NCBI GenBank assembly: GCA_902769185.1
Contig: CACXNV010000010.1
Coordinates: forward strand, 1-37,689
DNA from: an uncultured Erysipelotrichaceae bacterium
GTDB lineage: Bacteria > Bacillota_I > Bacilli_A > RFN20 > CAG-826
DNA: 37,689 bases
Direction: 5' to 3'
A program made the translations under genes and the position numbers. Below are positions 14,840 to 19,342 of this stretch, one piece after another. The notes under the pieces are model-generated. The model had not been told where the DNA came from. It did not search any database and saw nothing but the letters and a program-made list of their open reading frames with translations. Numbering within the stretch: the first letter of the stretch is position 1; each line of letters starts with the position of its first letter.

Positions 14840-16676
14840 ATCGAGTAGGGAGGAAAATTTAAATAATTTCCTCTCCCTCTCACACCACGTAACGTGCCGT
14901 TCGGCATTACGCGGTTCAACTTATTTTCAAAGCATGTCTTGCTAAATAATAATCTAGACAACTGACTAATCCCTTTTTGGTCAGTTTTTCTTTTGAAATT
15001 GCTCTAGATACACAAGTCTTAGTTACAATCCACATATAACGATTACCCATATATGCCGTTTGTCTTGCTAAGTCCTTATCAATACCAAGTTTCTTTAATC
15101 CCCATTCCCTTTTGCTTGGTTTCTTCCACTGCTTCCAAATAACAATTCTAAGCATTGTCCTAAGATGTGAGTCTATTTCTTTTTCTAGACTTCTTTTCAT
15201 GAATCCTAAAGCAAAATAGTTAATCCACCCTCTTATTACTTCGTTTAGTTTCTTTATTCGATAGGCGAGGTCAATACTCCATTTTCTTTCACATAGTTTC
15301 TTTAATGCCCTTTTAAACTTTTGAATAGAATCTTCATGTGGTCTTGCTTTGTATTGGTCACTACTATCTTTCCAAAACCCAAAACCAAGATATTTAAGTT
15401 TATTAGGTGTAGTTATATGAGTTTTTGTCATATTAACTTTTAATCCTAACTTTCTTTCTATCCATGAAGTTATGGAATGAATAACTCGGTTCGCGCTTGC
15501 ATGAGATTTGACTACAATAACGCAGTCATCTGCATATCTAACAAAATTAAGATTTCTAGATTCTAATTCTTTATCTAGTTCATTAAGCATTATGTTACTT
15601 AATAAGGGAGATAAGTTACCTCCTTGGGGTGTACCAAGATTTGACTTTTCAATTTGTCCGTTAATCATAACACCCGCTTGAAGATATTTTCTAATAAGGG
15701 ATTCCGTATCTCCATCGTTAATCATGTTATGCACTAAAGACATAAGTCTATCTTGAGGGACATTATCAAAGAATTTCTCTAAATCAATATCAACTACCCA
15801 TATAAACCCGTCATTAAACAAGTCTAATAATCTCATTATTGCTTGTTCGCAACTTCGATTTTGTCTAAATCCATATGAATAATTACTAAAATGTGGTTCG
15901 CATATTGGACTTAGTATTTGAGTAATTGCTTGTTCGATAATTCTATCGACAATAGTTGGGATACCAAGATTACGCACCCCTCCATTAGGTTTAGGAATTT
16001 CCACTCTTCTAACGGGTGAAGGTTTGTACGTTCTTTCTTGGATTTGCTGTTTGATATTATTCCAATTATTTAACATGTACTCATCAATTTGCTCTATAGT
16101 AATGTTATCAATGCCACCGCTACCATTGTTTGTTTTTACTTGTTTAGTAGCTAGGGCAATGTTGCTATCGGATAATATCGAGTCTAGTAATTTAGACATA
16201 CTTTCCGCTTCTTCTCCTTTCCGCTTCTAAGATTTAATTCCTACGTGTTGGATATTCTTTGAGATACGCTCATACATTTTCCTGTCGGATACATCTTAGA
16301 ACATACATTTGTTAAAGCGATATAAATTGTTTGGTCCTTTCTCTATTAAGTACTATGACCTCTGCTGACTTCCTATAGTTCGCTTTTCTAGGACTTCTCC
16401 TCTATAGGACCTCACGGGATAAGTTATATATCTTTCCTCGTTTACCTACCTAATTTACGGATTAAGAGTACGTTTGCCCTTTGGACTTTATTGCTTAAAG
16501 TCAACTTGTCCGCTTAATTCGCCTTAATATTAGGTTTCTATTCGTTAGGCCACGATTTCGCTATCCCTTCTTTTCATGCATAGTTATCTAGAGGCACTTT
16601 GGGAGTCGCTATCGGGTTGGTCGGCAAATACCTCCCTTCGGACTTTCACCGTAGATATATGACATGCCCGTCATAC
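14840..16676 (-). mobile_element. Group II intron, class C-like, inserted at a terminator
   Basis: The intron lies on the minus strand and begins at 16676 with GTATGACGGGCATG, 5 bases past a terminator stem (16682-16703). The 477 bases from 16676 to 16200 hold no gene and carry the structured domains I-IV (a typical GTGAAAGTCC stretch is near 16640). The maturase ORF follows. Domain V is read as AACCGCGTAATGCC, GAAC, GGCACGTTACGTGG (about 14880-14915). Domain VI is the AGGAAA/TTTTCCT hairpin with a candidate bulged A near 14846, ending GAT at 14840. Insertion just after a transcription terminator is the known habit of class C introns. The ends could be off by a base. Confidence 0.88.
14916..16199 (-). 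CDS. ltrA: Group II intron-encoded reverse transcriptase/maturase
   Basis: This 427-residue protein reverse-transcribes and helps splice its host intron. The RT domain shows DIDLEKFFD (137-145), GTPQGGNLSPLL (189-200) and the catalytic YADD (222-225). The maturase X and group II intron-specific regions fill about 300-400 (RGWINYFALGF, then WKQWKKPSKREWGLKKLG). There is no HNH endonuclease domain, as expected for class C. The ORF is full length and uninterrupted, and all catalytic aspartates are present, so the element may be active. Its stop lies just upstream of domain V. AAAGGAG and GGAAAG precede ATG 16199. Confidence 0.95.
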   Translation of the reverse strand: MSKLLDSILSDSNIALATKQVKTNNGSGGIDNITIEQIDEYMLNNWNNIKQQIQERTYKPSPVRRVEIPKPNGGVRNLGIPTIVDRIIEQAITQILSPICEPHFSNYSYGFRQNRSCEQAIMRLLDLFNDGFIWVVDIDLEKFFDNVPQDRLMSLVHNMINDGDTESLIRKYLQAGVMINGQIEKSNLGTPQGGNLSPLLSNIMLNELDKELESRNLNFVRYADDCVIVVKSHASANRVIHSITSWIERKLGLKVNMTKTHITTPNKLKYLGFGFWKDSSDQYKARPHEDSIQKFKRALKKLCERKWSIDLAYRIKKLNEVIRGWINYFALGFMKRSLEKEIDSHLRTMLRIVIWKQWKKPSKREWGLKKLGIDKDLARQTAYMGNRYMWIVTKTCVSRAISKEKLTKKGLVSCLDYYLARHALKIS

Positions 16677-18414: not shown

Positions 18415-18446
18415 TGTGGCACATTTGTGACAATTGTTGTGATAAC
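18415..18446 (+). promoter_or_regulatory. Promoter/operator of Nif11 gene A with three TGTG elements
   Basis: TGTG occurs at 18415, 18426 and 18438, in TGTGGCAC, TTTGTGACAA and TTGTGATAAC. The last forms an extended -10 (TGT-GATAAC), ending 28 bases before the ATG. The same spacing (0, 11, 23) and wording recur upstream of Nif11 gene B (19342-19311). This points to one regulator and promoter class for both genes. Confidence 0.65.
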
Positions 18447-18474
18447 ATTTACATGTCTAAGGAGAAAATAACTT

Positions 18475-18765
18475 ATGAAAAAAGAACTATTAAAAGGGTT
18501 AACCGAAGAACAAATTGCTAAAGCTAAAGCTTGTAGAAGCCAAGATGAATTATTAAAAGCCGCCAAGGAAGAAGGCGTTACACTTACTGATGAACAATTA
18601 GCAGCAGTCTCTGGTGGATTCTGTAGTTCTTCAGATTTTAGATGGAAATGCACTAAATGTGGTTCAAGCGATACAGAAGTGGTAGAAAGATATAATCAAG
18701 GTAAAGAAGATGAATATGTTCGAGTGCACTGCAAAAAATGCGGATACTACTTTTATGGATTATAA
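18475..18765 (+). CDS. Nif11-leader peptide with zinc-ribbon-like core (A)
   Basis: A 96-residue precursor-like protein. Residues 1-46 form a Nif11-type leader (KGLTEEQIAKAKACRSQDELLKAA..., then LTDEQLAAVSGG with a double-Gly site at 47-48). The core of 48 residues holds Cys50 and two CxxC pairs (C59-C62 and C86-C89) 23 residues apart, as in a zinc ribbon. In Nif11-type RiPPs the leader directs a modifying enzyme and an ABC transporter-protease cuts after GG; no such enzyme is seen in the window. AAGGAG lies before ATG 18475. It converges on a close paralogue at 18989. It may be an exported metal-binding peptide or an unmodified regulator. Confidence 0.85.
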   Translation: MKKELLKGLTEEQIAKAKACRSQDELLKAAKEEGVTLTDEQLAAVSGGFCSSSDFRWKCTKCGSSDTEVVERYNQGKEDEYVRVHCKKCGYYFYGL

Positions 18766-18786
18766 TTCTCTCTGAATAATATATTG

Positions 18787-18817
18787 AAATCCCCTTTTAG
18801 GGGATTTTTATTTTTGA
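18787..18817 (+). terminator. Terminator after Nif11 gene A
   Basis: AAATCCCC, loop TTTTA, GGGGATTT, then TTATTTTT. The stem is 8 bp and lies 22 bases after the stop. Confidence 0.9.
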
Positions 18818-18871
18818 TGTCATTCTTGTACAATTTTGATACAAATATTCAAAAAATATATTAAATCGCAT

Positions 18872-18896
18872 AAAAAACTGATAACAAGTATCAGTC
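18872..18896 (-). terminator. Terminator after Nif11 gene B
   Basis: On the minus strand ACTGATA, CTTGT, TATCAGT is followed by TTTTTT. It lies about 95 bases beyond the stop at 18989. Confidence 0.85.
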
Positions 18897-18988
18897 TTTA
18901 ACTACAATTTGTCTAAGTACTACGAGAAAAATATAAGAAACACTTTTTGGTAAGTAGTAACACTTTTAAAATGTTAACACGAACTAAA

Positions 18989-19282
18989 TTATCTATTCTT
19001 GGTCCATTGACATTGACATTTTTTGCATTCGTAATGAACGGTTTCATGCCCATCTGCAAAACGTTCACTCCAGAACATAATGTCATCATATCCAGCGCCA
19101 CATTGAGGACAATTATTTTCAGTTGAAGAGAATAAGCATCCACCGGATATCGCATTTAATTGTTCATCGGTTAATTCCACGCCTTCTTCTTTTGCTAACG
19201 CTAATAATTTTTCACTGTTGTTACAGGCTTTAATTTTTGCAATTTGTTCTTCTGTTAAACCTTTTAATAATTCTTGTTTCAT
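18989..19282 (-). CDS. Nif11-leader peptide with zinc-ribbon-like core (B)
   Basis: A 97-residue paralogue of gene A. The leaders differ at few positions (MKQELLKGLTEEQIAKIKAC versus MKKELLKGLTEEQIAKAKAC) and both end ...SGG at 46-48. The cores are more diverged but keep the layout: Cys49, CPQC (58-61), 24 residues, CKKC (86-89) plus a third Cys at 91. A conserved leader with a variable core is typical of RiPP precursor families. ATG 19282 follows AAAGGAG; a TTG six bases upstream is rejected. Its promoter matches that of gene A in spacing. It lies between that paralogue and the restriction-modification genes. Confidence 0.85.
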   Translation of the reverse strand: MKQELLKGLTEEQIAKIKACNNSEKLLALAKEEGVELTDEQLNAISGGCLFSSTENNCPQCGAGYDDIMFWSERFADGHETVHYECKKCQCQWTKNR

Positions 19283-19310
19283 GTTCAAAGTTCTCCTTTA
19301 TCAATTCTAC

Positions 19311-19342
19311 TTTATCACAAGTCTTGCCACAAAAGTGTCACA
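19311..19342 (-). promoter_or_regulatory. Promoter/operator of Nif11 gene B with three TGTG elements
   Basis: On the minus strand TGTGACAC, TTTGTGGCAA and TTGTGATAAA give TGTG at offsets 0, 11 and 23. GATAAA (19316-19311) ends 28 bases before the ATG, identical to gene A. GTGACA at the first element is a fair -35 box with a long 19-base spacer. Confidence 0.65.

What the first reader, a model, noticed from the sequence alone, without database searches (positions are those of the whole stretch)
18415..19342. Convergent pair of Nif11-leader/zinc-ribbon peptides sharing one promoter architecture
Two precursor-like genes keep a nearly identical 46-residue leader ending SGG and cores of about 48 residues with CxxC-N23/24-CxxC. 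Upstream of each, TGTG elements sit at offsets 0, 11 and 23, the last inside GATAAC/GATAAA, and the -10 box ends 28 bases before the ATG in both. The bases between are otherwise diverged, so the conserved positions are probably functional. Nif11 leaders are known for RiPP precursors, but no YcaO, LanM, radical-SAM enzyme or C39-peptidase transporter lies in the window. The core looks like a metal-binding fold, not a peptide to be modified. This may be a co-regulated family scattered in the genome.
Basis: partly seen in the sequence, partly recalled or inferred. Interest (0 to 1): 0.78.

Follow-up and report, generated by a model that had tools for sequence, protein, structure and literature searches.

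The report
Zinc-ribbon peptides sharing one export leader
The two small genes belong to a 16-copy family in this uncultured rumen-type bacterium: each encodes a small zinc-binding mini-protein behind a shared Nif11-type export leader, probably switched on together by one two-component regulator and processed by a maturation/export gene cluster whose central part is missing from this genome only because of an assembly gap.

Summary
In detail: both genes, their 48-residue GG-ended leaders, CxxC...CxxC cores and promoter elements are present and far exceed chance. The genome holds 16 full copies, ten on one contig. "No maturase" is an assembly artefact: relatives carry an operon with a radical-SAM/SPASM enzyme, an HlyD-like fragment, an NHLM-type C39 peptidase-ABC exporter, a second ABC exporter, STAS proteins and a SpoIIE phosphatase. 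The exporter is in 19 of 21 peptide genomes and 1 of 125 others. Here, contig C51 holds one end of that operon and contig C20 stops just before the radical-SAM gene; about 4.8 kb between is missing. The element tracks a response regulator with a SARP-like output domain (28 of 32 genomes versus 7 of 114). Best reading: a Nif11-leader, radical-SAM/NHLM peptide family whose cores are zinc ribbons under purifying selection, a new variant of a known kind. Whether those cores are chemically modified, and what the products do, is not shown.

The parts
18475..18765 (+). Precursor peptide 1 (96 aa): Nif11-type leader 18475-18618 ending SGG, zinc-ribbon core 18619-18762 (FCSSSDFRWKCTKCG...CKKCGYYFYGL)
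   Evidence: 97%-identical relative L047; core dN 0.02 / dS 0.39 against it
18989..19282 (-). Precursor peptide 2 (97 aa): leader 19139-19282, zinc-ribbon core 18992-19138
   Evidence: Nif11 PF07862 E 7e-4, TIGR03798 E 1e-3, both below the curated cut-offs
18415..18432 (+). Activator-type operator TGTGGCA-N4-TGTGACA (11-bp direct repeat) of peptide 1
18440..18448 (+). Extended -10 TGATAACAT of peptide 1; no -35 hexamer found by the promoter scan
19325..19342 (-). Activator-type operator TGTGACA-N4-TGTGGCA of peptide 2
19309..19317 (-). Extended -10 TGATAAAGT of peptide 2
18786..18808 (+). Intrinsic-terminator-like hairpin after peptide 1
   Evidence: 1 found, 0.4 expected in shuffles

Best explanation
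The two genes are members of a 16-copy family of RiPP-type precursors: a Nif11-like double-Gly leader fused to a small zinc-ribbon mini-protein. A histidine kinase/response regulator pair (own genome: contig C32) with a SARP-like winged-helix output domain activates them by binding the TGTGRCA heptamer pair over the -35 region of promoters that have only an extended -10. The shared leader hands the precursors to one cassette: a radical-SAM/SPASM enzyme acts on leader-bearing precursors, and the C39 peptidase of the NHLM-type ABC exporter cuts after GG and secretes the core. Shown by sequence: the family, the operator, the cassette in relatives, its flanks in this genome, the co-occurrence, purifying selection on cores. 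Inferred: that the cassette is complete in the living organism, that the regulator binds the operator, cleavage and export, zinc binding. Least certain: that the radical-SAM enzyme modifies the zinc-ribbon cores and not only the short-core peptide encoded next to it.
For: 16 paralogs. C39-ABC exporter (NHLM_micro_ABC1, 826 bits) in 19/21 peptide genomes and 1/125 others; radical-SAM enzyme in 16/21 and 0/125. Operon order conserved. Own genome: C51 = ABC2-STAS-STAS/APH-SpoIIE at 93% identity, C20 ends in the peptide gene before the radical-SAM gene. C39 recognition positions L-12 and L-7 before GG are conserved (consensus L(-12)xxxE(-8)L(-7) from PMC6363468; position -8 is Gln here). The operator also precedes the cassette's own peptide + radical-SAM unit. 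Exact operator in 28/32 genomes with a regulator orthologue against 7/114 without; 12/16 against 4/109 among genomes lacking the peptides. Output domain aligns to the SARP EmbR at 87.6% probability, E 3.5e-6, and not to PhoB. Core model matches NrdR and TFIIS-type zinc ribbons with Foldseek probability 0.98-1.00. Core dN/dS median 0.14.
Against: The exporter and radical-SAM genes themselves are not in the assembly. G093 has 13 peptides and the exporter, but no radical-SAM gene at its exporter locus or elsewhere in the 89%-complete draft, so the enzyme may be dispensable for zinc-ribbon cores. No RRE/PqqD domain was detected in the enzyme's N-terminus. Family scores fall just under several curated cut-offs. 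Genomes of one family are related, so the Fisher p-values overstate independence. The SARP assignment is weak by E-value in the unbiased search (0.6-1.2), and the EmbR comparison was chosen after it appeared there.
Confidence: 0.78

Rival explanations
1. Secreted but unmodified mini-proteins: the C39 exporter removes the leader and exports a folded zinc ribbon; the radical-SAM enzyme modifies only the short-core (13-20 aa) peptide encoded just upstream of it.
For: The short-core peptide sits directly before the radical-SAM gene in 9 of 16 distinct loci examined; exporter linkage (19/21) exceeds radical-SAM linkage (16/21); G093 lacks the enzyme at its exporter locus; cores have canonical four-Cys zinc sites.
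Against: All 132 peptides, short and long, share a Cys within five residues after GG, mostly followed by Ser/Thr, and the same leader, as if one enzyme saw both. Seven loci with the radical-SAM gene show no short peptide in the 600 bp upstream.
Confidence: 0.4
2. Intracellular zinc-ribbon regulators or metal-handling proteins whose N-terminal domain only resembles a RiPP leader; no export.
For: Zinc-ribbon fold close to NrdR/TFIIS-type domains; the exporter is absent from this assembly.
Against: Near-perfect co-occurrence with a double-Gly C39 exporter, and conserved C39 recognition residues and GG.
Confidence: 0.08
3. The operator is bound by a PhoB/OmpR-type regulator or another factor, not by the SARP-like response regulator.
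For: Tandem 11-bp repeats over the -35 region are also used by PhoB/OmpR-type regulators (own knowledge); five of 12 members of the output-domain alignment touch Trans_reg_C weakly.
Against: The operator tracks this particular regulator even in genomes without peptides and lies immediately beside its gene in several; PhoB does not align to its output domain.
Confidence: 0.2

Closest known systems
Nif11-derived peptides (N11P, TIGR03798) with the NHLM export cassette TIGR03794/03796/03797 (Haft 2010, PMC2887384)
   Same: Nif11-type double-Gly leader, large paralogous families, exporter pair ABC1 (with C39) + ABC2 + HlyD-like part
   Different: Cores here are conserved zinc ribbons; the HlyD part is only ~130 aa; scores lie just below the curated cut-offs; organisms are small-genome Bacilli
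Nif11/NHLP peptides with a radical-SAM enzyme as only candidate maturase (Haft 2011, PMC3023750; TIGR04064, TIGR04103)
   Same: Radical-SAM/SPASM enzyme as sole candidate maturase of Nif11-leader peptides
   Different: This enzyme reaches the cut-off of no such family (TIGR04103: 67 of 725 bits)
Prochlorosins/ProcM and the Lah system (LahA1-9/LahT)
   Same: Many precursors with one Nif11-type leader served by one enzyme set and one C39 exporter; the LahT protease cuts diverse Nif11 leaders (PMC6363468)
   Different: Those are lanthipeptide systems; here there is a radical-SAM enzyme and folded four-Cys cores under purifying selection
SARP operators of Streptomyces (PMC5930380, PMC10972967)
   Same: Heptameric direct repeats, 4-bp spacers, 11-bp period, over the -35 region
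   Different: Here the SARP-like domain is fused to a receiver and paired with a histidine kinase, in Bacilli
TIGR04165 methanogen Cys-rich peptides
   Same: Peptide 1 core scores E 5.5e-6
   Different: Below its cut-off (26.5 of 60 bits)

Membership tests
Nif11-leader RiPP precursors (TIGR03798/PF07862) | Match to the family profile | tested here: inconclusive
   63 of 73 relatives match TIGR03798 at E<0.01, best 2e-5; window members 15.5 and 19.2 bits against a 32.3 cut-off; five paralogs in this genome pass the PF07862 cut-off
Nif11-leader RiPP precursors (TIGR03798/PF07862) | Double-Gly leader with C39 recognition residues | tested here: met
   L37 (-12), Q41 (-8), L42 (-7), G47-G48 invariant or nearly so
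Nif11-leader RiPP precursors (TIGR03798/PF07862) | Conserved leader, divergent cores, paralogous expansion | tested here: met
   16 copies here, 1-35 per genome; leaders 71-85% identical to peptide 1, cores fall in 48 clusters
Nif11-leader RiPP precursors (TIGR03798/PF07862) | Post-translational modification of the core | not testable with these tools
   Needs mass spectrometry
NHLM export cassette (TIGR03794/03796/03797) | ABC1 with C39 domain plus ABC2, with HlyD-like protein | tested here: met
   In relatives: ABC1 826 bits (cut-off 853), ABC2 662 (cut-off 709), short HlyD match over 60 of 421 positions, all slightly or well below cut-off; in own genome only the ABC2 end is assembled
Radical-SAM/SPASM peptide maturase | CxxxCxxC radical-SAM domain plus SPASM domain | tested here: met
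   PF04055 E 1e-20, PF13186 E 1.5e-7 in a relative; CNLNCLHC motif
Radical-SAM/SPASM peptide maturase | RRE/PqqD leader-binding domain | tested here: inconclusive
   No Pfam match in the N-terminal 88 residues
SARP regulators | SARP-type winged-helix DNA-binding domain | tested here: inconclusive
   EmbR and AfsR are two of only three PDB profile hits, E 0.6-1.2; hhalign to EmbR E 3.5e-6; single-sequence fold too poor, pLDDT 39
SARP regulators | Operator of heptameric direct repeats, 11-bp period, over the -35 region | tested here: met
   92-site consensus
Zinc ribbon fold | Two CxxC knuckles on a small beta sheet | tested here: met
   AlphaFold2 core blocks pLDDT 81-88; Foldseek probability 0.98-1.00, rmsd 2.0-3.1 to NrdR and TFIIS-type ribbons, E-values weak; metal binding itself not tested

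The most novel reading that the evidence does not exclude
A RiPP-like class in which folded zinc ribbons, under strong purifying selection, are the exported (and possibly radical-SAM-modified) cores, with up to 35 precursors per genome served by one cassette and wired to one SARP-type two-component system: secreted zinc-ribbon mini-proteins acting as effectors or metal ligands, a role I know of for no zinc ribbon.
Probability: 0.35. Interest if true: 0.78.

Novelty: new variant of a known kind. Interest (0 to 1): 0.6.

Why it matters
Nif11/NHLM peptide families are known for short, diverse cores; this one appears to export conserved folded zinc ribbons, in an uncultured rumen lineage with ~1.3 Mb genomes. 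It offers a test bed: one exporter, one candidate maturase, many natural substrates. It also predicts, base by base, the operator of a SARP-like response regulator in Bacilli, so a regulon of peptides, cassette and surface proteins can be checked by one binding assay. And it is a caution: 'no maturase nearby' was an assembly break at a repeated leader gene.

Tried and rejected
The only C39 protein in the own assembly (C4:65272, ~405 aa, no ATPase domain, between ybeY and dnaJ genes) was considered as the processing enzyme and rejected: genomes of the family have it with or without peptides. Mobile origin: no plasmid match; one weak partial match among viral contigs. RRE domain search in the radical-SAM N-terminus: nothing. 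A first regex for the short peptide gave false negatives and was corrected. Literature searches for zinc-ribbon RiPPs or rumen Nif11 families found nothing relevant in the open library held, which is not proof of absence.

Full report
OBSERVATION. CDS 1 is 18475-18765 (+), CDS 2 is 18989-19282 (-). The leaders are 48 residues, 75% identical, and end SGG. Cores are 48 and 49 residues with CxxC-N23-CxxC and CxxC-N24-CxxC. The TGTG elements and the 28-base distance are exact.

A GENOME-WIDE FAMILY. The window is contig C10 of a 1.34-Mb, 67-contig, 94%-complete draft. A search with the leader finds 16 full-length copies: two here, ten on contig C20, and one each on C1, C17, C24 and C27. Alignment shows 26 invariant columns, among them L5-L9, E12-K16, C20, L37, E40-Q41, G47-G48 and the four ribbon cysteines. 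Positions -12 (Leu) and -7 (Leu) before the cut fit the C39 recognition rule; -8 is Gln rather than Glu (rule from PMC6363468). A scan of named genomes shows over two hundred relatives, mostly rumen Bacilli/Erysipelotrichaceae-labelled drafts; L047 encodes a 97% identical peptide 1.

THE CORE. All 73 aligned relatives keep the four ribbon cysteines. AlphaFold2 on that alignment gives pLDDT 81-88 over residues 61-96 with three strands and a low-confidence leader. Foldseek matches NrdR and TFIIS-type zinc ribbons with probability 0.98-1.00 but weak E-values; sequence profiles hit the same folds. In 132 distinct peptides every core has a Cys within five residues after GG, followed by Ser or Thr in 86. 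Between equal-length orthologous cores dN/dS has a median of 0.14 over 206 non-independent pairs; for leaders it is 0.12. Individual cores are therefore conserved across species.

THE PROMOTER. Over 92 distinct sites the consensus is TGTGRCAC[AT]T[TC]TGTGACAA, then TGnTAAnAT: two heptamers at an 11-bp period followed by an extended -10. No -35 hexamer was found at either promoter. The element lies within two mismatches upstream of 93 of 131 distinct peptides, against none of 131 shuffles, at a fixed distance; the peptides without it are, in this genome, mostly downstream members of tandem runs. This genome has 16 exact sites and two more with one mismatch. Sites not in front of zinc-ribbon peptides precede secreted or lipoprotein genes (C19, C21, C5, C27, C20:3506), the HipA-like gene, and the short-core peptide/radical-SAM unit at the end of C20.

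THE CASSETTE. In 146 genomes of the family, 21 have the peptides. A ~725-residue C39 peptidase-ABC exporter is in 19 of these 21 and in 1 of 125 others (Fisher p 1e-20); a radical-SAM/SPASM enzyme is in 16 of 21 and 0 of 125 (p 2e-17). These p-values ignore relatedness, but the peptide genomes span nine genera. The operon in relatives runs: short-core peptide, radical-SAM, HlyD-like fragment, ABC1 with C39, ABC2, STAS, STAS-APH, SpoIIE phosphatase, often with a HipA-like gene and sometimes a histidine kinase/response regulator pair.

WHY IT SEEMED ABSENT. The operon DNA of relative G022 matches own contig C51 (3.9 kb) at 93% over the ABC2 end, STAS, STAS-APH and SpoIIE, and own contig C20 on the other side, which ends inside the short-core peptide gene just before the radical-SAM gene. 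On G022's coordinates about 4.8 kb lie between. Presence of those genes in the organism is thus inferred, not read.

THE REGULATOR. The kinase/regulator pair is in this genome on C32. The exact operator is found in 28 of 32 genomes with a regulator orthologue and 7 of 114 without; restricted to genomes without peptides, 12 of 16 against 4 of 109. The operator often sits immediately beside the regulator gene. The output domain resembles SARPs, not PhoB; SARP operators are heptameric repeats with 4-bp spacers, usually over the -35 region (PMC5930380; PMC10972967).

HOW IT WORKS. Signal, kinase, regulator, operator, coordinated expression of peptides and cassette; leader-guided radical-SAM chemistry on at least the short-core peptide; C39 cleavage after GG and export of zinc-ribbon cores. 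The regulatory and export steps are well supported by correlation; modification of the ribbons is about even odds; the biological target is unknown. My guesses for function are inter-bacterial competition or extracellular metal binding; neither was tested.

MEMBERSHIP. It works like Nif11/NHLM peptide systems and meets most of their features; profile scores fall just under some curated cut-offs and modification is untested, so I file it as a new variant of that kind. Radical-SAM enzymes as sole candidate maturase of Nif11 peptides were already reported (PMC3023750).

Noticed in passing
L125, L129, L130, L133, L134, L136, L138, L185, L060 (upstream of radical-SAM genes); own C20:1-90: A separate class of leader peptides with 13-20 residue charged cores and one Cys near the start (such as ACSTSEDKTDDGHRRKFDS) lies 4-21 bp (150 bp in L060) before the radical-SAM gene, under the same operator; a signal peptide or the enzyme's prime substrate is possible.
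   Followed up: partly
own C4:65272-65664 and most genomes of the family: Solitary C39 peptidase-like membrane protein of ~405 aa without an ATPase domain, between ybeY and dnaJ genes here, present with or without the peptides; function unknown.
   Followed up: partly
G006, G059, G126, G144 (L186, L175, L169, L187): Genomes without the peptides keep the kinase/regulator pair with the operator just downstream, before large secreted proteins: the regulon may predate the peptide system.
   Followed up: partly
own C20:452-1648 and relatives: HipA-like ~395 aa protein (weak PF07804) under the operator next to the radical-SAM unit in many loci; role unclear.
   Followed up: no
L070, L073, L079, L085: Drafts labelled Pseudobutyrivibrio or Lachnospiraceae carry the peptides, L073 with radical-SAM and exporter too; mislabelled drafts or horizontal transfer.
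   Followed up: no
window 14916-16199 (-): Group II intron reverse transcriptase/maturase (PF00078, PF08388) near the peptide pair.
   Followed up: no
G093 (L140): 13 peptides and the exporter but no radical-SAM gene at the exporter locus: a natural test of whether the enzyme is needed.
   Followed up: partly
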